NCBI GenBank assembly: GCA_018457135.1
Contig: JAGGDU010000195.1
Span: 22,315 to 86,314 of the forward strand
DNA from: Trichodesmium erythraeum GBRTRLIN201
Lineage (GTDB): Bacteria > Cyanobacteriota > Cyanobacteriia > Cyanobacteriales > Microcoleaceae
DNA length: 64,000 nt
Direction of reading: 5' to 3'
Below the pieces are notes generated by a model. The model was not told where the DNA came from. It saw only the letters and a program-made list of their open reading frames with translations, and did no database searches. Both the position numbers and the translations under genes were made by a program. Below, one piece after another: positions 46,806 through 58,586 of this stretch. Every line of letters starts with the position of its first letter. Position 1 is the first letter of the stretch.

Positions 46806-47885
46806 ATGGTTTGTGCGGTTATTTTAACAGCAATTCGTATCGAATATATGGCGGTATCTGCTCATCTTAGTGATTTGAGGGAGGAGATACACCCTAATGG
46901 GACAATTTATGAGAGGGGCCAATTTTCTGTTGGTGGCCAAGAGTGGGAAGTGGGTATTGTCCAGACTGGTGCTGGAAATTCTCCTGCAGCGATGGAGGCT
47001 GAGAGAGCGATCGCTTATTTTAAGCCTGATGTGATTCTATTTGTTGGGGTAGCTGGAGGAATTAAGGATGTCCAATTGGGAGATGTGGTTGCTGCTACTA
47101 AGGTTTATGGTTATGAGTCGGGAAAGGTGGCTGAGACTTTTAGGCCAAGGCCGGATGTTGGCCGTTCAACTTATAATTTGATTCAACGGGCAAAAGCTGA
47201 GGCAAGAAAAAGAGATTGGTTAGCTAGATTTTCTGATTCAGCTCAACCTAATGTATTTGTTGAGCCTATTGCTGCGGGAGAAAAGGTGGTTACTAATAAG
47301 AAATCAGATTTATTTGAGTTTCTTCAGCACAATTATGGTGATGCTTTAGCAGTGGAAATGGAAGGTCATGGTATTTTAAAAGTTGCTCATGCTAATCAAC
47401 AGGTTTCGGCTTTAATTATTCGGGGTATTTCTGATTTAATTGATGGGAAAAGTAGGGCGGATGAAGGGGGTTTTCAAGAAATAGCTGCTCGTCATGCTAG
47501 TGCTTTTGCTTTTGAGGTTTTAGGGAAGTTTTGGTTAAGTAGAAATCAAGAATATAATGGGGAAAGTCATCCAAAGTCTTCTAATTTTTTGGCTGATAAT
47601 TTTGAGGAAAGTATGAAATTACAAGAGGTTTTAATTGACTATTTTAATGCTCGGCAGAAACCTGGTCAACATTTAAAGTCATTAGTAAATATTAGTCAGA
47701 TACAGGTTGATACAGCGGCAATAGATTACAATTTACCTGTGAGAGAGTTAATTCCTAATTTTTATCCTGAAATTTTTAAAAGTAGGGAGAATTCTCTATC
47801 TTTTCTGAGAGTTTTTCGGAGTCATTTACTTAAAGATTCTGATGAACAATTATTTGTTAATAAAATCATTGCAATGATTCGGTAA
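46806..47885 (+). CDS. Nucleoside phosphorylase/nucleosidase-fold effector with C-terminal effector-associated domain
   Basis: This is a 359-residue protein. Residues 1-245 are a phosphorylase/MTA-SAH nucleosidase fold: VGIVQTGAGNSPAAMEAERA, PDVILFVGVAGGIKDVQLGD, ALAVEMEGHG (183-187, Glu for the ribose) and IRGISDLIDGK with the catalytic-type Asp210. Residues 262-359 form a helical domain (LQEVLIDYFNARQKPGQHLK, IDYNLPVRELIPNFYPEI) that is clearly homologous to the N-terminus of the next protein. This is the signature of effector-associated domains, adaptor modules in vWA-MoxR conflict systems. I infer that the enzyme cleaves a nucleoside or nucleotide as a toxic effector. It is the first gene of a co-directional block to 53637. 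Confidence 0.85.
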   Translation: MVCAVILTAIRIEYMAVSAHLSDLREEIHPNGTIYERGQFSVGGQEWEVGIVQTGAGNSPAAMEAERAIAYFKPDVILFVGVAGGIKDVQLGDVVAATKVYGYESGKVAETFRPRPDVGRSTYNLIQRAKAEARKRDWLARFSDSAQPNVFVEPIAAGEKVVTNKKSDLFEFLQHNYGDALAVEMEGHGILKVAHANQQVSALIIRGISDLIDGKSRADEGGFQEIAARHASAFAFEVLGKFWLSRNQEYNGESHPKSSNFLADNFEESMKLQEVLIDYFNARQKPGQHLKSLVNISQIQVDTAAIDYNLPVRELIPNFYPEIFKSRENSLSFLRVFRSHLLKDSDEQLFVNKIIAMIR

Positions 47886-47955: not shown

Positions 47956-49029
47956 ATGTTCAAGTTGAGTATTGATGAAAAAATTAAGTTAGAGGAAATT
48001 TTAACTGACTATTTTAATGGGCTAGAAAAACCTAGCGAAGGTTTAAAAGCAATGATAAATATTAGTGAGGTACAAATTGATATAACGACAATAGATTACA
48101 AGTTACCTGTGAAAGAGTTAGTCACTAATTTTTATAGCTTAATTTTAAAGAAACCAGAAGATTTAGAATCTTTTTTGATATATTTGCAAAATAAATTAGA
48201 TCCAGATGAAAGATTGACTATCAAAGGATATATTGAAAAACTTAAGCCCAAGCGATCGCGAATAAACCAAATTCCTGATCATCGTTCACGTATGTCTAAA
48301 AAAAGGCAACAAAACCATGAAATACCGACATCTAAAACACCTATCAAAATAAAAGATAATAATAAAGATAATAATAAAGATAACAATATAATTGTTAAAT
48401 ATGATTTAGATGAGTTAGTCTACAAATTTAGAAAAGCATTAGATTATCAAGGAGTTTTTGCTTTTAGTCTTGGGGAAGAGTACACAATTTTAAAGAATTA
48501 TATTATTGAGAGAATTCTCCACGAATTACAGGAGAAAACTCAACGTGATTATTGGTCTCGTGAGATTAGATTGAGTCGGAATTTAAAATCAATTGATGAT
48601 GACTTAAAAAATAACAACATAAATCAAATAACTGATTTATTAGCTGAGACTGATCCTTTAGATGTTGTATTAATAATTTGGAATTACAATATCAATAAAA
48701 AAAATTTAAATTCGATGACAGATATTTTTTTATCAGAAATAAAAACGAAATGTAATTGCTATTTAGAAAATAAAAGTCGCTGTTTAATTATTATTTTTGC
48801 TAATGTTAAGATAAAACAATCTATTCAGGGTTGTATTAACCTGAGCATACCTAAATCATTTCAAATTAATGAATTATGTGACTGGTTTAGGGGTTATCTT
48901 CAAAAATTACAGATACAAGATGATATGATAAATACATGCCTTAGAAAGTTAAGAAATGCTGATGGTCATTTGCTTTCTACTTATAATACTCTTGAAGGAA
49001 TTATTGACGAACTACGAGCAATTAATTGA
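47956..49029 (+). CDS. EAD - inactive-STAND-like adaptor protein
   Basis: This is a 357-residue protein. Residues 1-95 repeat the effector-associated domain of the preceding protein (LEEILTDYFNGLEKPSEGLK, IDYKLPVKELVTNFYSLILK). A basic linker (KPKRSRINQ, then DNNKDNNKDNN) leads to a C-terminal domain from about 150 (DELVYKFRKALDYQGVFAFS, PLDVVLIIWNYNINKK, KSRCLIIIFANVKIK, FQINELCDWFRGYLQKL). The strand order resembles a STAND NTPase, but the P-loop position reads FSLGEEYTILKN without GK(S/T), so it should not hydrolyse NTP. That fits the inactive-STAND modules described in these systems. Inferred role: link the phosphorylase-type effector to the MoxR-vWA core. It is 16 bp before the MoxR gene. 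Confidence 0.8.
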   Translation: MFKLSIDEKIKLEEILTDYFNGLEKPSEGLKAMINISEVQIDITTIDYKLPVKELVTNFYSLILKKPEDLESFLIYLQNKLDPDERLTIKGYIEKLKPKRSRINQIPDHRSRMSKKRQQNHEIPTSKTPIKIKDNNKDNNKDNNIIVKYDLDELVYKFRKALDYQGVFAFSLGEEYTILKNYIIERILHELQEKTQRDYWSREIRLSRNLKSIDDDLKNNNINQITDLLAETDPLDVVLIIWNYNINKKNLNSMTDIFLSEIKTKCNCYLENKSRCLIIIFANVKIKQSIQGCINLSIPKSFQINELCDWFRGYLQKLQIQDDMINTCLRKLRNADGHLLSTYNTLEGIIDELRAIN

Positions 49030-49044
49030 AAAAATATTGAAAAA

Positions 49045-50082
49045 ATGAACGACTTAGCAAATAGACAATATGAAGGTCAAGGTAATGACCAAAAGTATGA
49101 ACGATTAAAAGACGAAAAGGGGAAAGAATTTCTAGATATACCCATAAAAAAAGAACCTTATATTGCTTCTAAAAATTTGGCTGAGGCAGTCAATGATGCT
49201 CTCTATTTACGCCGCCCTTTATTGTTGGAAGGTGAACCTGGTTGTGGTAAAACTCGTCTTGCTTATTCTATTGCTTATGAGTTGGGTTATCCTTTGAAAG
49301 AATGTTATATTCGTTCTACGATTCGGGCTGAAGAATTACTCTATACTTATGATAATATTCGCCGTTTATATGACCTTCAAGAATATAGATTGATTCAGGG
49401 TAAATTAGAGGAGAAAGATATTAATAATTCACCTCAAGTAACTAATGTTATTGACCGGGAAACATATATAGAGTTGGGCAAGTTAGGAGAGGCTATTGAG
49501 CTTTCTGATAAAAATAATATTCCTTCGGTGGTTTTGGTTGATGAAGTTGATAAGGCTGATATTGATTTTCCTAATGATTTACTGTTGGTTTTAGATAGGT
49601 TACAGTTTGAAGTAAAGGAGGTAAAAAACTTGAAATATGATGCTCTTCGAGGAGAGGAGCGGGAAGACAGAAAGGATTTTTTGCCTTTGATTATTATTAC
49701 GAGTAATCAAGAGAAAGAATTACCTAAGGCTTTTTTACGTCGCTGTCTGTTTTATTATATTGGCTTTCCGAATAAGGAGGATTTGAGGAAGATTATTATT
49801 AATCATTTTCAACAGGATGTTTCTCCTCTTTTTGAAGTTGCTTTAACTAAATTTGTAGAACTTCGTGACGATATTTCTTGGCGGAAAAAACCTAGTACGG
49901 GAGAGTTTATTAATTGGTTGCGACTTTTAGAAAGAGGATTGCCAAATAATACAACTCAGGAGTATCAGGAAATCAAAGCTGAAGTTTTAAGGGAGACTAA
50001 ATTATATCAACTTCCTTTTCTCCATACTTTAGTAAAAAATCAAAGTGACCAAAATACTATAGAAAAGTTAAAAAATGATTGA
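49045..50082 (+). CDS. MoxR-family AAA+ ATPase
   Basis: This 345-residue AAA+ protein has Walker A GEPGCGKT at 63-70, Walker B SVVLVDEVDKAD at 161-172, sensor 1 LIIITSNQEKELP and the arginine-finger region KAFLRRCLFYYIGFP. A Glu-rich insertion (ELGKLGEAIELSDKNN) precedes Walker B. MoxR ATPases act as chaperone-like remodelers, paired with vWA proteins. Here the vWA gene follows directly, and a duplicated 5' stub of it overlaps the MoxR stop codon. It starts 16 bp after the inactive-STAND gene, so it is in the same operon. No key residue is missing. Confidence 0.92.
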   Translation: MNDLANRQYEGQGNDQKYERLKDEKGKEFLDIPIKKEPYIASKNLAEAVNDALYLRRPLLLEGEPGCGKTRLAYSIAYELGYPLKECYIRSTIRAEELLYTYDNIRRLYDLQEYRLIQGKLEEKDINNSPQVTNVIDRETYIELGKLGEAIELSDKNNIPSVVLVDEVDKADIDFPNDLLLVLDRLQFEVKEVKNLKYDALRGEEREDRKDFLPLIIITSNQEKELPKAFLRRCLFYYIGFPNKEDLRKIIINHFQQDVSPLFEVALTKFVELRDDISWRKKPSTGEFINWLRLLERGLPNNTTQEYQEIKAEVLRETKLYQLPFLHTLVKNQSDQNTIEKLKND

Positions 50083-50146
50083 TTTTGAATTATTAATTGT
50101 TGAATTTGAAGCTCTTTTATTGCCTTTATTTAATAGGTTGAGGTAA
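50075..50146 (+). pseudogene. Duplicated 5' stub of the vWA gene
   Basis: ATG 50075 opens a 23-codon frame MIDFELLIVEFEALLLPLFN-RLR, ending at TAA 50144. It is nearly identical in DNA and protein to the first 23 codons of the gene at 50238. Its ATG overlaps the MoxR stop by eight bases, the spacing expected for the original coupled start. The functional vWA start is now 155 bp further on. Confidence 0.88.
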
Positions 50147-50237
50147 AAGAGCTTAGATTTGGTTGATTCGCGAAACTAAACACTAATAAAGCAACAAAAT
50201 CCAATACCAAACCAGTAGATAAGCTGAAAATTAATAA

Positions 50238-51398
50238 ATGGTTGACTTTGAATTATTAATCGTTGAATTTGAAACTATTTTATTGCCTTTATTTAATAGG
50301 TTGAGGCAAAAGGATATTCCCGTGGGAATTTCTGAATATTTACTGGCGATTAAAATGATTCAATCTCGAGGGGCGTGGCAGGATATTGAACGTTTAAAAC
50401 GACTTTTATGTTTGTTATGGGTTAAGTCTTTAGAAGACCAATATATTTTTAATCAATTGTTTGAGGAGTTAGTTAGACCTGAGTTAGAAAAGCAATTACT
50501 AGAAGCTGATAAATCTCCATTGCCTAAAATTGATGAGGATTCTACTTCTCCTCCTCAAAAGACTGAAAATTTAGATATTAATAGTAATCCTATTTCTCAA
50601 GTTTCATCTAAAGTTCAAAAGGAAAATAAACCTCAACCTAATCAACCAACTAATTCAATCCCAATTCGCGATTTTTCGAGAAAATCTCTGTCAGAAATAA
50701 CCCCAATAAAACTGAGATTTAGACAAAGTTATAATTTGATTCCCCGTTTACCAATAACTCGCCGAGAAATGACTAGTATTTGGCGTAATTTAAGGTTGTT
50801 AAAACGAGAGGGTGCGCCGGAAAATTTAGATGTTCAAGGAACAATTAATCTATTTTATAAAATGGGTTTTTTCTCTGGTGTGGTTTTACAACCTTCTAGA
50901 AAAAATCAAGTTAAGTTGGTTTTGTTAATTGACTGTGAAGGTTCCATGTCTCCTTTTAAATTGTTGATTGATACTTTACAGGAAAGTATTGAAAAAGTAG
51001 GGTTGTTAAATCAAAAGAATATTTTTTATTTTCACAATGTGCCGAGGGGTTATCTATTTACTAAACCTAATTTAACTAAGCCTTTGCCTATTGAGGAAAT
51101 TTTATCTCAGGAAGTTGGTAATAATAGTGTGGTTATTGTTAGTGATGGGGGGGCGGCACGGCGCACTTATGATAGTGAAAGATTCCATCAAACTAAGGAA
51201 TTTATACGGCAATTATCTGATAAAACTTATTTATATGGATGGTTAAACCCTGTTCCAGAATTTCAGTGGAGGATGACCACTGCTGAAGATATTGCTACGT
51301 TTATTCCTATGTATTCTTTAAATCCACAAGGATTAAATGATTTGGTTAAAATATTGTTAGGATATCCTTTTCCAATGGGAGTTAATTTGCATGGTTAA
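50238..51398 (+). CDS. vWA-domain protein of the MoxR-linked type
   Basis: This is a 386-residue protein. The N-terminal helical region (VDFELLIVEFETILLPLFNR, GISEYLLAIKMIQSRGAWQD, RLLCLLWVKSLEDQYIFNQL) is like CoxE/SAV_2336-type proteins. A low-complexity Pro/Asn/Ser linker spans 95-145. The vWA domain runs 220-386. The metal site reads DCEGSMS at 232-238, Asp232-x-Glu-x-Ser, so the usual second residue Ser is Glu. VVIVSDGGAARRTYDSERF continues the fold, with YLYGWLNPVPEFQW after it. Partner of the MoxR ATPase. The stop overlaps the start of the next gene by eight bases. The start ATG at 50238 is chosen because the upstream copy is truncated. Confidence 0.88.
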   Translation: MVDFELLIVEFETILLPLFNRLRQKDIPVGISEYLLAIKMIQSRGAWQDIERLKRLLCLLWVKSLEDQYIFNQLFEELVRPELEKQLLEADKSPLPKIDEDSTSPPQKTENLDINSNPISQVSSKVQKENKPQPNQPTNSIPIRDFSRKSLSEITPIKLRFRQSYNLIPRLPITRREMTSIWRNLRLLKREGAPENLDVQGTINLFYKMGFFSGVVLQPSRKNQVKLVLLIDCEGSMSPFKLLIDTLQESIEKVGLLNQKNIFYFHNVPRGYLFTKPNLTKPLPIEEILSQEVGNNSVVIVSDGGAARRTYDSERFHQTKEFIRQLSDKTYLYGWLNPVPEFQWRMTTAEDIATFIPMYSLNPQGLNDLVKILLGYPFPMGVNLHG

Positions 51399-53637
51399 AA
51401 CTATTGAGGCGGTTGTTAGAAAGCTATGGCTATCTCCGGAGAATGCCGTGGAAGAGGTGGTAAGATTTGAGCGTCGTTTTGGAGAAGAAAATTTTAAGCT
51501 TGCTTGTCATTGTGGGTTGTTTTTGATTTTAACTCCTGAATTAGTTAATTTAATTCGGATTAATTTTTTGGATGAGGAAAATATTCCTTGGATAGGAGAA
51601 AGTAATTTTTTGTTGTCTTCTTTATGTCGTCCTTTACAAGAGGGAGTTTATGAGGTTGAGCCTTGTGTGAGGGAAGTTTTGTTGGAGGAATTGGAGGATA
51701 AATTTGGTTGGCGACGACCTTTTGAATTGGCTGAATTTTTGTGGTTTTATTTGGATAAACAAGGGGAGAGAAAACCATCTGGAGAGTTAAGAATGGTTCA
51801 AGAATGGATTGCTCAAGCTTATTTAGATCCCGATAGGACAATTCGGGAAATGGAGAGCTTTTTATCTGAAAGTTTGCCGGAAGATAATCCGGTTTTGGGG
51901 TTAGCTGGTCAAGAAAAAATTCCTTATTTAGTGGAGATTTTGGCTCAACCTTTGGAGCAGACTAATTTATGGAAAGAGTATCAAAATTTGGTGCTTAATT
52001 CTCATGTTTTGGCAAAGTTATTGGTTGATGAAAAGGAGGGGTTAGGGGAGGAAATTGAGGAGTTAAAAGAAGAGTTTGGAGATGGGGAGGAGGTCAAATT
52101 AGGTAATGAGAAGTTTTTCTTAATTCATCCTGTTATTAAAAAGTTTTTGGCAGAGTTTCCTCCAGAAAAAGGAATAGATTATATCTGTGAAGCTAAATTA
52201 CTAATTGTTGGAGAAGCTGGAGCTGGTAAAACAGCTTTAGCTAATAAAATTATCAACCCAAACTATCAACTCAAAGATGAAGATACAACCAAAGGAATTG
52301 AAGTTTATCAGTACAACTTTAAGACAAAAAACCAAAATGACTTTCAAATAAATATTTGGGATTTTGGCGGACAAGAAATTTATCACGCTACCCACCAATT
52401 TTTCCTGACCAAACGCTCCCTATATACCCTTGTCGCTGATACCCGCAAAGAAGATACAGACTTTTATTATTGGCTCAATGTAGTAGAATTATTAAGCGAT
52501 AATAGCCCCTTATTAATTGTGAAAAATGAGAAACATGAACGGCAACGAGAAATTAATCAACGGGGATTGCAAGGGCAATTTACTAACATTAAAGAAATCT
52601 TAGCTACCAACCTTGAAACTAATCGCGGTTTAGAAGAAATTATCAGAGAAATCGAACATCATATTAGTGAATTACCCCATATTGGCAGTAGTTTACCTAA
52701 AACTTGGAAACAAGTCCGGGAAATCTTAGAATTAGACTCCCGTAACTATATTAGTCTAGAAGAATATTTATCTATTTGTAAACAAAATGGCTTGACAAAA
52801 TTGGAGTATAAATTACAGTTAAGTCGCTATTTACATGACTTAGGAATTTGTCTTCATTTTCAGGATAACCCACTGTTAAATAAAACAGTTATTCTCAAAC
52901 CAGAATGGGGAATAGCGGCAGTTTATAAAATCTTAGATAATCCGACAGTTTATAATAACTTCGGCAAATTCACCAAAGATGATTTAACCAATATCTGGAA
53001 TGAAGAAAAATATGTGGATATGCGCGATGAACTACTCCAGTTAATGATTAGATTTAAACTATGTTATAAAATTCTTGGTAATTCTCAGACCTATATTGCC
53101 CCTCAACTTTTAACAGAAAATCAACCAGAATATGACTGGGATGAAAATAACAATTTGATTTTACGTTACACCTACAAATTTATGCCCAGAGGAATTATCA
53201 CTCAGTTTATTGTAGATATGCACCGAGATATTGAACAACAGAAATATGTTTGGAAAAGGGGAGTTATTATCAAGCAAAATGAAACCAGAGCAGAGGTAAT
53301 TGAATATTACGACAGAAGAGAAATAAAAATTAGGGTTTCTGGACGACAAAAACGGGCTTTAATGACTCTCGTAACTTACCTATTAGATAAAATTCACAGT
53401 TCCTATAATAATCGACTCAAATATAATCACTTATTTCCTTGTACTTGTGCTGCTTGTAAAAATAGCCAGAATCCACATTTTTATAAACTTGAAAAATTAA
53501 AAGAATGGATTCGTAATGGTAGACTAAAAACTACCTGTGAGAATCATCCTTATAATGAAGTTAATATAAAGAGTTTAATTGATAATGTAATAAATATAGA
53601 TTTATTATCAAAACTTAGATATATGGTACGCGATTAA
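51391..53637 (+). CDS. Roc-COR (ROCO) GTPase with vWA-MoxR-linked N-terminal domain
   Basis: This is a 748-residue protein. Residues 1-160 (VEEVVRFERRFGEENFKLAC, LFLILTPELVNLIRINFLDE, VREVLLEELEDKFGWRRPFE) are the helical region normally encoded right after vWA genes in these loci, ahead of a variable domain. Here the variable part is a Roc-COR GTPase: P-loop GEAGAGKTA at 274-282, switch II IWDFGGQEIYHATHQFF with DFGGQE at 324-329, and ADTRKED. The COR region at about 445-660 includes YISLEEYLSICKQNGLT and VILKPEWGIAAVYKIL. The last 90 residues carry CTCAACK and a later Cys-His pair that could bind zinc. It overlaps the vWA gene by eight bases. The stop codon lies in the duplication seam with the next segment, so the C-terminus may be truncated. 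Confidence 0.9.
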   Translation: MVKTIEAVVRKLWLSPENAVEEVVRFERRFGEENFKLACHCGLFLILTPELVNLIRINFLDEENIPWIGESNFLLSSLCRPLQEGVYEVEPCVREVLLEELEDKFGWRRPFELAEFLWFYLDKQGERKPSGELRMVQEWIAQAYLDPDRTIREMESFLSESLPEDNPVLGLAGQEKIPYLVEILAQPLEQTNLWKEYQNLVLNSHVLAKLLVDEKEGLGEEIEELKEEFGDGEEVKLGNEKFFLIHPVIKKFLAEFPPEKGIDYICEAKLLIVGEAGAGKTALANKIINPNYQLKDEDTTKGIEVYQYNFKTKNQNDFQINIWDFGGQEIYHATHQFFLTKRSLYTLVADTRKEDTDFYYWLNVVELLSDNSPLLIVKNEKHERQREINQRGLQGQFTNIKEILATNLETNRGLEEIIREIEHHISELPHIGSSLPKTWKQVREILELDSRNYISLEEYLSICKQNGLTKLEYKLQLSRYLHDLGICLHFQDNPLLNKTVILKPEWGIAAVYKILDNPTVYNNFGKFTKDDLTNIWNEEKYVDMRDELLQLMIRFKLCYKILGNSQTYIAPQLLTENQPEYDWDENNNLILRYTYKFMPRGIITQFIVDMHRDIEQQKYVWKRGVIIKQNETRAEVIEYYDRREIKIRVSGRQKRALMTLVTYLLDKIHSSYNNRLKYNHLFPCTCAACKNSQNPHFYKLEKLKEWIRNGRLKTTCENHPYNEVNIKSLIDNVINIDLLSKLRYMVRD

Positions 53638-54536
53638 ATATAGCAGCAGCTCGTCCTGTAGAAATGGGAGAAAACTACACTAATAATCTAGTCACTCGAC
53701 TTATTTCAGAATTAAAACCTCGTTGTTTAGCAATGACCGGAGTTTGTGCAGGTAATAAAAAAAAGACTTTTTTAGGTGATGTAATTGTTGCAAATCGAGT
53801 CTTTAAATTTGACTATGGTAAACTTGTTACTCATTACGAATCAATAGGTGATAAACAAATTTTTACTGAAGAAATATTCCATGATATTCGCACTTATAAC
53901 TTGAAACGCCAATGGGAATTTATCATTCAAGAATTTCCCCAAGATTGGCTAAATACTATTCAAACTCCTAGACCAAAATCTGACTATCATCAAGAACGTT
54001 GGTTACTCCACAAACTCTATGATTTTAAACAACAACCATACAAATATTCACGTCCTGACCAGCACCCAGAAAGACCAACAGAATGCCCAGATTAGAGAAA
54101 AGTAATTCAACAATTAAGAGAAAAAGAATTATTAAAAACAGACTCCTTGGAATTAACCGAAAAAGCTCAGAAAGAAATTAACAATGAACGACTAGAATAT
54201 TTAGAAGAACAACGCTATAAAGACCCATCATATCCACAAATTCATACAGGGGTAATTGCTACTACAAATAAAGTACAAAAAGACCCCCAACTTTTCCAAC
54301 GTATCGAAAAATTACAACGGAAAATATTAGGAGTAGAAATGGAAGGTGCAGCTATTGGTGCAGTAGCAGAAATTGAGGAAATTCCCATCATTATTGTTAA
54401 GGGAGTTCAAGATTATGCTGATGATGATAAAAGTGACCAATTTCGTCAATATGCAGCGGAAGTTTCCGCCCGCTTTTTATTAGCTTTTTTGACTACAATA
54501 GAATTAGCAAGATTTCGGAAAAAAGGAGACTTATAA
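53632..54536 (+). pseudogene. Truncated, nonsense-bearing copy of the EAD-phosphorylase gene
   Basis: From ATTAAATATAG at 53632 to about 54530 the DNA is nearly identical to 57688-58583, the C-terminal two thirds of the gene at 57105. The EAD and the start of the phosphorylase fold are missing. TGG (Trp) of the intact gene is TAG at 54093-54095, splitting the frame into two open pieces (53664-54095 and 54147-54536). EMEGAAIGAVAEIEE and VKGVQDYADDDK are preserved. The last bases (54511-54570) instead resemble 56405-56453 of the neighbouring EAD gene, so the copy is a mosaic. Confidence 0.9.
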
Positions 54537-54627
54537 ATTAAAAAATATCTGCAAAGTCAATATAATATAAATCTCAAAGAGCTACGCTGTTAATATTTAG
54601 TGTAAATAATTGATAGGACTCAAAAAA

Positions 54628-55935
54628 TTGAAACTAAGATATAAATATAGGTGCTATCCAAACCTTATACAAAAAATTAATTTAGCTAAATTATTTGGAT
54701 GTACAAGAGTAGTTTGGAATGATGGGTTAGCCTATTGTATTCAAGAATTTAAATCAACTAAGAAAAAGCCAACTAATTCCGAACTTCAAAAAGTCTTTAT
54801 TACTCAAGCTAAAAAGACAATTGAGAGAAGTTGGCTAACCGAAATATCCGTAGTTCCATTGCAACAATCCTTAAACGATTTACATCAAGCTTATCAAAAC
54901 TTTTTTAACTCAGCAACAGGTAAGCGTAAAGGAATGAAAATTAAATCTCCTAAATTCAAGAAGCGCAAGTCAAAACAGACTGCTAGGTTTACAAAAATAG
55001 GGTTTAAGCTAAGTCAAGATAAGGTATATTTAGCCAAAATAGGTAAAATAAAAGTTGCTTGGTCAAGACCCTTACCTATTGAACCTACATCAGTCACAAT
55101 AATTAAGGATTCAGCTAATAGATATTTTCTGAGTTTTGTAATAGAAACATCTGCTGAAACATTACCCAAAACTGATAATTCTATTGGAATTGATTTGGGA
55201 ATTTCTACTTTTGCTACATTGAATAATGGTCAGAAATTTGAAGCTCCTAAACCACTTAAGAAAAATCTCAAAAAATTAGCTAAGTTTCAACGCCAGCTTG
55301 CTCAGAAAATACCAGGTAGTAAGCGTAGAGAAAAAGCTAAATTAAGGGTAGCTAAACTTCATGCTAAAATCACAGACATTAGAACTGATTTTCTTCATCA
55401 ACTATCCACTAAGTTAATTCGCGAATACGACACAATAGTATTAGAAGACTTAAATGTTTCTGGTATGGTTAAAAACAGAAAACTAGCTAAGGCTATTTCT
55501 GATTTAGGATGGAGAATGTTTAGGACATTATTAGAAACTAAATGTCAAAAATATGGTCGTGAGTTTAGAGTTATTAACAGATGGGAACCTACGAGTCAAA
55601 AATGCTCTCATTGTGGGTTTCGTGGAGGTAAAAAGGAATTAAATGTTAGAGAGTGGAATTGTTTGAAATGTGGCACACACCATGACCGTGATGTTAATGC
55701 TGCTGTAAATATTTTAGAAGTTGTTCAACTGAGAACCAAGGTTGAAGTAATTGAAACTAAAGTATTAGAAAATCCTGTACAATTATCTCTTTTCAATATA
55801 GTCGCCGACGGTCAGTCGGAGACTGAACAAAAACGAGCATTGAGCAAAGGTAAGACTTGCCGTAAAAAGCCAGCTAATTGTGATGAAATGCTAACCCGCT
55901 TTGAGTCTTTCAAGCAGCTTAATCTGTTTGATTGA
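54628..55935 (+). CDS. tnpB: TnpB-type RNA-guided nuclease (IS200/IS605, solo)
   Basis: About 435 residues. The family N-terminus is LKLRYKYRCYPN, so I prefer TTG 54628 as start; another TTG at 54610 adds six residues and no ATG is near. The RuvC residues are intact (numbering from 54610): IGIDLGISTFATL (Asp195), IVLEDLNVSGM (Glu279) and HDRDVNAAVNIL (Asp361). The zinc ribbon is CSHCGFRGGKKELNVREW, then CLKC. TnpB cuts DNA with a guide RNA made from the element's right end. No TnpA gene is adjacent, so the unit would need one in trans to move. It sits between the phosphorylase pseudogene and the next island genes. Confidence 0.93.
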   Translation: MKLRYKYRCYPNLIQKINLAKLFGCTRVVWNDGLAYCIQEFKSTKKKPTNSELQKVFITQAKKTIERSWLTEISVVPLQQSLNDLHQAYQNFFNSATGKRKGMKIKSPKFKKRKSKQTARFTKIGFKLSQDKVYLAKIGKIKVAWSRPLPIEPTSVTIIKDSANRYFLSFVIETSAETLPKTDNSIGIDLGISTFATLNNGQKFEAPKPLKKNLKKLAKFQRQLAQKIPGSKRREKAKLRVAKLHAKITDIRTDFLHQLSTKLIREYDTIVLEDLNVSGMVKNRKLAKAISDLGWRMFRTLLETKCQKYGREFRVINRWEPTSQKCSHCGFRGGKKELNVREWNCLKCGTHHDRDVNAAVNILEVVQLRTKVEVIETKVLENPVQLSLFNIVADGQSETEQKRALSKGKTCRKKPANCDEMLTRFESFKQLNLFD

Positions 55936-56062: not shown

Positions 56063-57028
56063 ATGAGTTCAACTGAAGCAATAATATTTTCTATTTTAAA
56101 CCGAGATAACATTACACAACTGGAATTAATTTTCCAAAGATTATTTCAGCAATTTGATTCTATTTCTGGAAGGCGAGCATTTTTACAGTTAGCGGGAATA
56201 GATGACTATTTTATAAATGGCCGAGATTTTAATTTACCTCCTCAGCAATTTATAACTATATTAGTTGCTGACTTAAAAAGTTATAGAATCTCTCGACAAA
56301 ATCCTTATTATCATCCACTGTTATTCATTATAGACTATGTAATTAATCAACCTAGAGAAAAATTTTATCATTTAGATGATCGAGATATTGAATATTTAGC
56401 AACGTTTCGGAAAAGGGGAGATTTACAAATTAAAATATATCTGCAAAATCAATCTCCTGAAACAATAAAACGTAATACTCAAAATTTAGATATTTACTTG
56501 AATAAAATTGAGAAAAATCTCAAAAATCAAGGTGCTTTAGATATACAAAATAACGTTCTAAGTAAAGATAGAAAGTTTGAATTTGAGCGTGTAGCAAAAA
56601 TCACTGATTTTGAACTTCATTTCGATGCATTTAATATGAGAGGAGATGCGTTTTTTATCATCGATTATTTTCCCTCTATAAATACAAAAAGTTTAAGACA
56701 GTATTCTACTCAATGCCTAGAATATGGAAAAGATAAAGCTACTTCATCTGTTGGCACACAAATTTTAAATGCTAGGGTACCTTGTAATATTTGTTTTGCT
56801 ATAGCTGTGGTTAAAAACTTAGACAAAGAAACTAAAATTAAAATACGTCAAGAAAATCCTTTCGATCAAAATCTAGATTTATTATGGTACGAAGTTCCTG
56901 TTATTTATTGTTTAGATGAAAAAATACTTTATTTTTATGACCAACCTTCATCATTCTGGGAAAAATTTAAGGGAGAAGTAGTATGGACAAGGTTGAGAGA
57001 AGTCATTGAAACGACTTTAACACCTTAA
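56063..57028 (+). CDS. EAD-containing protein with unrecognised C-terminal domain
   Basis: This is a 321-residue protein. Residues 1-120 are a helical domain (LFQQFDSISGRRAFLQLAGI, FNLPPQQFITILVADLKSYR, YYHPLLFIIDYVINQ) that is homologous to the start of the next protein, so it is an effector-associated domain of a second family, distinct from that at 46806-48240. A short linker follows. The C-terminal 150 residues (FELHFDAFNMRGDAFFIIDY, LRQYSTQCLEYGKDKATSSV, NICFAIAVVKNLD, DLLWYEVPVIYCLDEKILYF) look like an alpha/beta domain I do not recognise, perhaps the effector. A strong ribosome site AAGGAG precedes ATG 56063. The next gene starts 76 bp on. Confidence 0.72.
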   Translation: MSSTEAIIFSILNRDNITQLELIFQRLFQQFDSISGRRAFLQLAGIDDYFINGRDFNLPPQQFITILVADLKSYRISRQNPYYHPLLFIIDYVINQPREKFYHLDDRDIEYLATFRKRGDLQIKIYLQNQSPETIKRNTQNLDIYLNKIEKNLKNQGALDIQNNVLSKDRKFEFERVAKITDFELHFDAFNMRGDAFFIIDYFPSINTKSLRQYSTQCLEYGKDKATSSVGTQILNARVPCNICFAIAVVKNLDKETKIKIRQENPFDQNLDLLWYEVPVIYCLDEKILYFYDQPSSFWEKFKGEVVWTRLREVIETTLTP

Positions 57029-57104: not shown

Positions 57105-58586
57105 ATGCCAAACACCCGTATATTCTCAGATATATCACAGGACGATTTGATTAAAATAGAGAGATTATTGGAAAATATTTTGATAAATATTGATGGTATA
57201 GCAGGAAGAAAAGCTATTTTGAAAAATGCTGGATTTGCTCAATATTTTATCGCTGGTCTTGATTTTAACTTAAATATTTATGAATTTATTACTATTTTAG
57301 TCTCCAAATTTAAAGACTATCGAGTTTCTAGTCAAAGATTAGATTATCATCCTTTAATAGCTTTGTTAGATTATCTTTTGAAGCAACCAGAAAGATATAA
57401 CTTAGAGAATACAGATATAAAGTTTGCTCGGAAAATTATTAATATCGGTAAAATCAAAATCCAAGAATTAAAAGCAGAATTCAAAACCCAAGAATTAAAA
57501 CCAGAATTCAAAATAGAAATACCTCATGAAACACCTACTATTGATATTCTAATTATTACAGCCCTAAAAGATGAATTAAACGCTCTGAAAAACTGTGATA
57601 ATCAATCTGGAAAGAGTTGGCAAGAATTGAAAGACAGTTCCAATTATTCCTACTACAAAACTACTTTCAACCATAAAAACGGTACTCAATTAAATATAGT
57701 AGCGGCTCGTCCTGTAGAAATGGGAGAAAACTACACTAATAATCTAGCCACTCGACTTATTTCAGAATTAAAACCTCGTTGTTTAGCAATGACCGGAGTT
57801 TGTGCAGGTAATAAAAAAAAGACTTTTTTAGGTGATGTAATTGTTGCAAATCGAGTCTTTAAATTTGACTATGGTAAACTTGTTACTCATTACGAATCAA
57901 TAGGTGATAAACAAATTTTTACTGAAGAAATATTCCATGATATTCGCACTTATAACTTGAAACGCCAATGGGAATTTATCATTCAAGAATTTCCCCAAGA
58001 TTGGCTAAATACTATTCAAACTCCTAGACCAAAATCTGACTATCATCAAGAACGTTGGTTACTCCACAAACTCTATGATTTTCAACAACAACCAGACAAA
58101 TATTTACGTCCTGACCAGCACCCAGAAAGGCCAACAGAATGCCCAGATTGGAGAAAAGTAATTCAACAATTAAAAGAAAAAGAATTATTAAAAATAGACT
58201 CCTTGGAATTAACTGAAAAAGCTCAGAAAGAAATTAAGAATGACCGAATAGAATATTTAGAATACCAACATTACAAAGACCCCTTAAATTCTCAAATTCA
58301 TACAGGGGTAATTGCTACTACAAGTAAAGTACAAAAAGACCCCCAACTTTTCCAACGTATCGAAAAATTACAACGGAAAATATTAGGAGTAGAAATGGAA
58401 GGTGCAGCTATTGGTGCAGTAGCAGAAATTGAGGAAATTCCCATCATTATTGTTAAGGGAGTTCAAGATTATGCTGATGATGATAAAAGTGACCAATTTC
58501 GTCAATATGCAGCGGAAGTTTCCGCCCGCTTTTTATTAGCTTTTTTGACTACAATAGAATTAGCAATATTTCGGAAAAAAGGTTGA
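57105..58586 (+). CDS. EAD - nucleoside phosphorylase-fold effector
   Basis: This is a 493-residue protein. Residues 1-125 share the effector-associated domain of the preceding protein (ILINIDGIAGRKAILKNAGF, FNLNIYEFITILVSKFKDYR, DYHPLIALLDYLLKQ). A linker with repeated (F)KTQELKPEFK-type units follows. The phosphorylase/nucleosidase fold starts at about 147 (IDILIITALKDELNALKNCD). It has RPVEMGENYTNNLATRLISE, PRCLAMTGVCAGNKKKTFLG, VEMEGAAIG at 429-437 (Glu for the ribose) and IIIVKGVQDYADDDK with Asp455. An insertion with RPKSDYHQERWLLHKLYDF sits mid-domain. The C-terminal end IFRKKG lies at a recombination seam: the DNA after it matches the 3' end of the gene at 56063 in another frame. A partial copy is at 53632. 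Confidence 0.86.
   Translation: MPNTRIFSDISQDDLIKIERLLENILINIDGIAGRKAILKNAGFAQYFIAGLDFNLNIYEFITILVSKFKDYRVSSQRLDYHPLIALLDYLLKQPERYNLENTDIKFARKIINIGKIKIQELKAEFKTQELKPEFKIEIPHETPTIDILIITALKDELNALKNCDNQSGKSWQELKDSSNYSYYKTTFNHKNGTQLNIVAARPVEMGENYTNNLATRLISELKPRCLAMTGVCAGNKKKTFLGDVIVANRVFKFDYGKLVTHYESIGDKQIFTEEIFHDIRTYNLKRQWEFIIQEFPQDWLNTIQTPRPKSDYHQERWLLHKLYDFQQQPDKYLRPDQHPERPTECPDWRKVIQQLKEKELLKIDSLELTEKAQKEIKNDRIEYLEYQHYKDPLNSQIHTGVIATTSKVQKDPQLFQRIEKLQRKILGVEMEGAAIGAVAEIEEIPIIIVKGVQDYADDDKSDQFRQYAAEVSARFLLAFLTTIELAIFRKKG

What the first reader, a model, noticed from the sequence alone, without database searches (positions are those of the whole stretch)
51391..53637. ROCO GTPase as the variable third component of a vWA-MoxR system
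The first 160 residues look like the region normally translated directly after the vWA gene in these loci, fused here to a Roc-COR module with intact P-loop and DFGGQE switch. That would couple GTP state to MoxR-vWA action, two NTPase switches in one system.
Basis: partly seen in the sequence, partly recalled or inferred. Interest (0 to 1): 0.75.

Follow-up and report, generated by a model that had tools for sequence, protein, structure and literature searches.

The report
Roc-COR GTPase captured by vWA-MoxR system
In a filamentous cyanobacterium a predicted multi-protein immune system has had its replaceable working end swapped, apparently recently, for a GTPase module cut from an ordinary leucine-rich-repeat Roco receptor gene, and the broken remains of the old working end still lie right behind it.

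Summary
ORF 51391-53637 (748 aa) is an intact Roc-COR protein with an N-terminus that no other Roco examined has. Residues 1-~258, not only 1-160, are the domain normally encoded directly after a vWA gene. I found it in 113 ORFs: 12 fused to vWA, 99 behind a vWA gene, and usually joined to FGE, TPR or NB-ARC modules. Profile-profile comparison makes it homologous to the post-vWA linker of VMAP systems (94.7%), i.e. most likely the published 'vWA-L'. Of about 67 sampled cyanobacterial Rocos none has it; nearly all have LRRs.

'Third component' is a misnomer. That role belongs to the upstream EAD plus inactive-STAND protein (47956-49029). The Roco sits in the interchangeable effector slot.

DNA junctions show how it arose. 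vWA-L aligns with Okeania relatives up to 52159-52166. From 52164 to ~53600 the DNA is 90% identical to LRR-Roco genes, including one in this genome. From 53625 it is a truncated, stop-containing remnant of the nucleoside-phosphorylase effector still intact behind vWA-L in a relative. Roc-COR behind vWA is published for VMAP systems, and I found such a case on a Nostoc plasmid. This is therefore a new, recently assembled variant of a known kind. GTP coupling to MoxR/vWA is untested.

The parts
46806..47885 (+). PNP/nucleosidase-fold protein (res 5-238) with C-terminal helical domain 'EADx' (res ~264-359): candidate EAD-coupled signalling or effector enzyme
   Evidence: PF01048 9.3e-27; motifs VEMEG and RGISDLIDG present; EADx shared with the next gene
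47956..49029 (+). Third (constant) component: N-terminal EADx (res 1-97) plus inactive-STAND-like domain (res ~142-357), no Walker A motif
   Evidence: Profile-profile match to PF19995-positive iSTAND proteins, 83.5%, score 48.7 against a shuffled maximum of 18.4; predicted model's Foldseek hits are led by Apaf-1/CED-4/NRC resistosomes, Orc/RFC
49045..50082 (+). MoxR-type AAA+ ATPase, Walker A GEPGCGKT and Walker B LVDEVDKAD intact; lacks the N-terminal motifs typical of VMAP-system MoxR
   Evidence: PF07728 6.1e-11; NCBIfam MadB-like AAA 1.9e-25; motifs
50238..51398 (+). vWA protein, CoxE-type, MIDAS-like DCEGS
   Evidence: PF05762 4.1e-5; NF041121 SAV_2336-related 5.1e-10; family profile
51391..53637 (+). 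The finding: vWA-L + Roc + COR protein, 748 aa; its start overlaps the vWA stop by 8 nt
51391..52164 (+). vWA-L domain, residues 1-258: winged helix (16-124), helical arm (131-211), small second winged-helix-like unit (218-254)
   Evidence: 113 homologous ORFs; AlphaFold pLDDT 89.6, pTM 0.86; best VIA matches are STAND proteins; hhalign to VMAP-system vWA linker 94.7%
52164..53600 (+). Captured Roc-COR-A-COR-B module (res 258-~737)
   Evidence: 90.1% DNA identity without gaps over 1435 bp to the LRR-Roco of contig C241; 90.5% over 1438 bp to the LRR-Roco of Trichodesmium MAG_R02
52210..52233 (+). P-loop GEAGAGKT (res 274-281)
52360..52377 (+). Switch II DFGGQE (res 324-329)
53625..54526 (+). 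Remnant of the displaced PNP effector: N-terminus missing, in-frame TAG at 54093 (TGG in the intact paralogue); the Roco stop codon (53635-53637) lies inside it in another frame
   Evidence: 86.8% identity to the PNP fused to vWA-L in L197; 96.9% to own EAD8-PNP 57681-58582
54610..55935 (+). TnpB/OrfB (IS200/IS605) inserted between the PNP remnant and the EAD8 module
   Evidence: PF01385 2.5e-32, PF07282 2.8e-24
56063..57028 (+). EAD8 plus uncharacterised domain; [quoted passage not shown]
   Evidence: PF19961 2.4e-11; DNA 81.6% to L197 7312-6313
57105..58586 (+). EAD8-PNP protein, intact paralogue of the remnant
   Evidence: PF19961 5.9e-16, PF01048 2.1e-18

Best explanation
SHOWN BY SEQUENCE: this is the effector-slot protein of an inactive-STAND-type MoxR-vWA ternary conflict system. 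Its vWA-L domain (res 1-258), encoded in an ORF overlapping the vWA gene, carries a Roc-COR GTPase module that replaced an older PNP-EAD8 effector. The module comes from the resident LRR-Roco family; the LRR sensor was left behind. INFERRED: vWA-L docks on the vWA protein, so the Roc-COR module is held by the MoxR-vWA machine instead of by LRRs. When the EADx/inactive-STAND component (with its EADx-linked PNP enzyme) signals invasion, MoxR remodels vWA/vWA-L. This changes the orientation of the arm that now replaces the alpha-0 helix/LRR swivel in front of Roc, and so the nucleotide-dependent COR dimer-monomer state. With no enzymatic domain behind it, Roc-COR probably acts as a GTP-gated assembly switch. 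It may act by pairing with other Roc-COR proteins of the cell, not as an enzyme on a target.
For: Operon order and domains. vWA-L association with vWA in 111 of 113 ORFs; two more such loci in the same genome with FGE and TPR. vWA-L homologous to the VMAP-system linker. Base-level junctions with an Okeania relative (L199), G423 (L197) and LRR-Roco (C241), and the decayed PNP remnant. Same slot filled by PNP-EAD8, a VWA_2 domain, NB-ARC-TPR and PNP-TIR-like-NTPase in orthologous loci. GTPase core conserved, closest solved relatives MbRoco, CtRoco and LRRK2. CtRoco's GTP-driven dimer-monomer cycle and alpha-0 swivel between LRR and Roc are published (PMC11052575). Separate vWA-L gene is published for iSTAND2 and a minority of iSTAND systems (PMC8195603).
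Against: No experiment. vWA-L binding to vWA and any GTP coupling are inferred from fusion and gene order. The fusion junction is seen in one assembly only: the Trichodesmium MAG_R02 contig ends at window position 52088, just before it. A single domain swap could be a dead-end allele; dN/dS of about 0.4 on Roc-COR includes time before the fusion.
Confidence: 0.62

Rival explanations
1. Roc-COR is a decoy or dominant-negative or recruiting module: through COR-COR pairing it draws resident LRR-Roco receptors (84% identical Roc-COR, with LRR and a likely membrane segment) into, or out of action at, the MoxR-vWA complex.
For: The closest homologues are in the same genome and its sister genome; COR-B mediates dimerisation in CtRoco and LRRK2 (PMC11052575); ternary systems are argued to take up modules for dominant-negative interactions (PMC7159879).
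Against: No interaction data; the module's own P-loop and switches look active, whereas a pure decoy need not keep them.
Confidence: 0.22
2. Non-functional relic: random recombination put a Roc-COR fragment behind vWA-L, and the gene is on its way to decay like the PNP remnant.
For: Neighbourhood full of remnants and a TnpB insertion; C-terminal residues come from out-of-frame remnant DNA; only one genome shows the fusion.
Against: No stop or indel in 1435 bp of Roc-COR against relatives at 10% DNA divergence; 109 of 110 conserved columns kept; recurrent fusion of the same domains in VMAP systems.
Confidence: 0.13
3. Assembly chimera between a vWA-L locus and an LRR-Roco gene.
For: Roc-COR is a multi-copy repeat in these genomes, and the sister assembly breaks just before the junction.
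Against: The Roc-COR copy differs by 10% from the other copy in the assembly; both ends are fused, the 3' end into a PNP remnant that is itself truncated; 94 kb contig, genome 99.97% complete.
Confidence: 0.05

Closest known systems
VMAP ternary systems with AP-GTPase(Roc)-COR fused to the vWA component (Kaur et al. 2020, PMC7159879); example examined here: Nostoc sp. UHCC 0926 plasmid pn3 (L247)
   Same: MoxR, vWA, vWA-L, then Roc-COR in the effector slot
   Different: There the third component is EAD10-VMAP-M1-VMAP-C and vWA-L-Roc-COR is fused to vWA; here the third component is inactive-STAND-like, vWA-L-Roc-COR is a separate overlapping gene, and the Roc-COR is only 33% identical to the plasmid's
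iSTAND / iSTAND2 MoxR-vWA ternary systems (PMC7159879, PMC8195603)
   Same: Inactive STAND third component with N-terminal EAD, CoxE-type vWA, vWA-L with effectors on a separate adjacent gene
   Different: The 2020 survey names AIG GTPases, not AP-GTPase-COR, as the GTPase effectors of iSTAND systems; the EAD here matches no Pfam EAD model
LRR-Roc-COR 'AP-GTPase' proteins of bacteria; CtRoco, LRRK2
   Same: Roc-COR module 84% identical to the resident LRR-Roco; same G motifs
   Different: LRR replaced by vWA-L; no domain after COR-B
Orthologous vWA-L loci in Okeania and related filamentous cyanobacteria (L197, L199, L198, L111, L112)
   Same: Same operon type, same vWA-L, break at about the same point (residue ~258)
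   Different: Other effectors: PNP-EAD8, a VWA_2 domain, PNP-TIR-like-NTPase-TPR, NB-ARC-TPR

Membership tests
MoxR-vWA ternary conflict system (iSTAND or iSTAND2 type) | MoxR AAA+ gene followed by vWA gene | tested here: met
   49045-50082 and 50238-51398
MoxR-vWA ternary conflict system (iSTAND or iSTAND2 type) | Third component = inactive STAND module encoded 5' of MoxR | tested here: met
   hhalign 83.5%, score 48.7 against a shuffled maximum of 18.4, to proteins that hit PF19995; STAND/AAA+ fold of the model; no Walker A. No direct Pfam hit, so iSTAND versus iSTAND2 versus TERNS3 is not settled
MoxR-vWA ternary conflict system (iSTAND or iSTAND2 type) | Effectors joined through vWA-L, here on a separate gene next to vWA | tested here: met
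   definition in PMC8195603
[quoted passage not shown]
   EADx shared by 46806-47885 and 47956-49029, 44% identical; a relative fuses PNP directly to the third component (L110 2754-4388). Membership of a named EAD family not established
VMAP ternary system | VMAP-C domain in the third component; WxhapG/PsWRxa motifs in MoxR | tested here: not met
   No PF20028 hit and no such motif in the window; VMAP-C and a PSWR motif present in the Nostoc pn3 control
Roco (Roc-COR) protein | Roc GTPase domain followed by COR with intact G motifs | tested here: met
Ordinary bacterial LRR-Roco | N-terminal leucine-rich repeats | tested here: not met
   No LRR hit in residues 1-265; LRR-type N-termini in nearly all of about 67 other Rocos sampled
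vWA-L domain (PMC8195603) | Helical linker between vWA and effectors in VMAP and iSTAND systems | tested here: met
   Position and homology to the post-vWA linker of VMAP-type vWA proteins, 94.7%; the authors' own alignment was not available
MoxR-vWA ternary conflict system (iSTAND or iSTAND2 type) | Anti-invader function | not testable with these tools
   Prediction in the literature; no assay here

The most novel reading that the evidence does not exclude
vWA-L is a STAND winged-helix/arm unit acting in trans. The inactive STAND core (47956-49029) and vWA-L (51391-52164) together would form a split STAND receptor powered by MoxR, and here its output arm has been rewired to a Roc-COR GTPase cut out of an LRR receptor. 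The result would be a hybrid of the two receptor classes (STAND and Roco) in one complex.
Probability: 0.18. Interest if true: 0.8.

Novelty: new variant of a known kind. Interest (0 to 1): 0.5.

Why it matters
It catches effector replacement in a predicted bacterial immune system nearly in the act. Donor family, both breakpoints and the remains of the displaced effector are all readable. It shows vWA-L (res 1-~258) as the plug-in socket and Roc-COR, torn from its LRRs, as a module that can be plugged in. It gives a natural construct for asking whether Roc-COR, the LRRK2-type switch, works when driven by a AAA+ chaperone instead of LRRs. The likeness of vWA-L to STAND winged-helix domains suggests a testable link between MoxR-vWA systems and NLR/STAND receptors.

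Tried and rejected
'Second vWA-L-Roc fusion in G423': the tblastn match 1-322 was an alignment overrun; the protein is vWA-L-PNP-EAD8. 'Third component' label for the Roco: rejected. VMAP type: rejected (no VMAP-C, no MoxR motif). Reverse order of events (vWA-L-PNP derived from a vWA-L-Roc ancestor by deletion): unlikely, because the window's PNP lacks its N-terminus, which the relative has in full. EADx as a known EAD: no Pfam hit; hhalign to EAD8 only 38%, left open. Foldseek on vWA-L gave no match at E<=0.001; only VIA-align pointed to STAND winged helices. Other members of the genus for the junction: none resolves it.

Full report
Observation. ORF 51391-53637 encodes 748 aa. Pfam gives Roc, COR-A and COR-B over residues 269-732 and nothing before. 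P-loop GEAGAGKT and DFGGQE are intact. In an alignment with 48 other cyanobacterial Rocos it departs from one of 110 strongly conserved columns. Solved relatives are MbRoco (4wnr), CtRoco (3dpu, 6hlu) and LRRK2.

Locus. Upstream lie PNP-EADx (46806-47885), EADx plus inactive-STAND-like protein (47956-49029), MoxR (49045-50082) and vWA (50238-51398). The vWA stop overlaps the Roco start by 8 nt. Two further vWA-L genes in the same genome follow vWA genes and carry FGE and TPR modules.

The N-terminal domain. A profile from residues 1-215 finds 113 ORFs in the loci collected by a search for this domain alone. Twelve are fused behind vWA, 99 are separate and behind vWA on the same strand (median gap 5 nt, 76 within 100 nt), and 2 are exceptions, one at a contig end and one (L104) on the strand opposite its neighbouring vWA. 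Pfam on 106 C-terminal parts: FGE-sulfatase in 58, then TPR, AAA/NB-ARC, CHAT, caspase. A Roc-COR profile found no member with Roc other than the window's. Conversely, of about 67 Rocos sampled none has this domain, and nearly all have LRRs (one short one, L227, has neither). Compared with nine VMAP-type vWA proteins from plasmids, residues 15-121 match the region behind vWA at 94.7% probability, score 56.3 against at most 23.9 for 40 column shuffles. This fits the 'vWA-L' of Kaur et al. 2021, described as a helical linker that is a separate gene in iSTAND2 and some iSTAND systems (PMC8195603). AlphaFold (pLDDT 89.6) shows a winged helix, a helical arm and a second small winged unit. The seven best VIA-align rows are all STAND/NLR proteins (MalT 8bob Z 9.5, 115 aligned, rmsd 3.2; 6mfv Z 8.4; Dark; ADR1; NLRP3; NLRP9), aligned mostly through what I take to be their winged-helix region. 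Foldseek alone was not significant, so this is a lead.

Third component. ORF 47956-49029 has no convincing Pfam hit. Its family matches PF19995-positive iSTAND proteins found at the same place in other loci (score 48.7 against at most 18.4 shuffled). Its model resembles Apaf-1, CED-4, NRC resistosomes and Orc/RFC. There is no Walker A. Its N-terminal EADx is shared with the PNP gene before it, and an Okeania relative fuses PNP directly to this component. It is therefore the constant third component; the Roco is in the effector slot.

How it arose. DNA identity to Okeania SIO3I5 (L199) and to G423 (L197) runs from the vWA gene through vWA-L and stops at window 52159 and 52166. From 52164 to 53598 the DNA is 90.1% identical without gaps to the LRR-Roco on contig C241 of this genome, and 90.5% to one in Trichodesmium MAG_R02. 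From 53625 to 54490 it is 86.8% identical to the PNP that is fused to vWA-L in L197, and after a TnpB insertion 56042-57035 matches the EAD8 part of that same L197 protein. The window's PNP lacks its N-terminus and has an in-frame TAG at 54093 where the intact paralogue has TGG. The Roco's own stop codon lies within this remnant in another frame. The remnant is also 96.9% identical to the EAD8-PNP gene at 57105, with tracts of full identity, so gene conversion or a partial duplication has acted. The simplest history is insertion of a Roc-COR segment into a vWA-L-PNP-EAD8 gene with loss of about 120-170 bp. Orthologous loci carry a VWA_2 domain, NB-ARC-TPR and PNP-TIR-like-NTPase behind the same vWA-L.

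Known background. Kaur et al. 2020 (PMC7159879) report AP-GTPase-COR linked to vWA in VMAP systems and AIG GTPases in iSTAND systems. On Nostoc plasmid pn3 I find EAD10-VMAP-M1-VMAP-C, MoxR with the PsWR motif, and vWA-linker-Roc-COR. The kind is thus known. What is new is the inactive-STAND setting, the split gene, the recent origin and the visible swap.

Mechanism. Inferred: vWA-L docks on vWA. The Roc-COR module, whose dimer-monomer cycle in CtRoco is GTP-driven with an alpha-0 helix linking LRR and Roc as swivel (PMC11052575), now hangs on the vWA-L arm at that point. MoxR action on vWA/vWA-L would set its state. Doré et al. 2024 (PMC10907252) propose that the variable module is a sensor and the third component carries the effector; with Roc-COR, which lost its LRR sensor, a switch role fits better than a sensor role. 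No step of this is tested.

Limits. One assembly shows the fusion; the 98% identical sister contig ends at 52088. Roc-COR dN/dS is about 0.4 against both nearest relatives, but this includes time before the fusion. The donor need not be the C241 gene itself: its tree position next to the window copy has only 0.67 support.

Noticed in passing
50064-50149 and 50227-50312: 86-bp direct repeat (90.7%) that duplicates the start region of the vWA gene behind MoxR.
   Followed up: no
50553-50636: Repeat of about 80 bp in the vWA linker that differs in copy number between relatives (window 1, Trichodesmium MAG_R02 2, Okeania L199 3).
   Followed up: partly
L200 (Trichodesmium MAG_R02), opposite window 48340-48980: The sister operon lacks about 640 bp, leaving an EADx-only ORF of 178 aa instead of the EADx/inactive-STAND protein.
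   Followed up: partly
53711-54010 and 54311-54510 versus 57105-58586: Tracts of full identity between the dead PNP remnant and the intact EAD8-PNP gene 4 kb away suggest gene conversion.
   Followed up: partly
46806-47885 res 264-359 and 47956-49029 res 1-97: Helical domain shared by adjacent genes that behaves like an effector-associated domain but hits no Pfam EAD model; weak likeness to EAD8.
   Followed up: partly
54610-55935: TnpB/OrfB gene without a TnpA neighbour seen, inserted between the old effector's PNP and EAD8 parts.
   Followed up: no
L247 3751-9827 (Nostoc sp. UHCC 0926 plasmid pn3): Complete VMAP ternary system with vWA-Roc-COR on a conjugative plasmid, with an EAD10-WD40 protein downstream.
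   Followed up: yes
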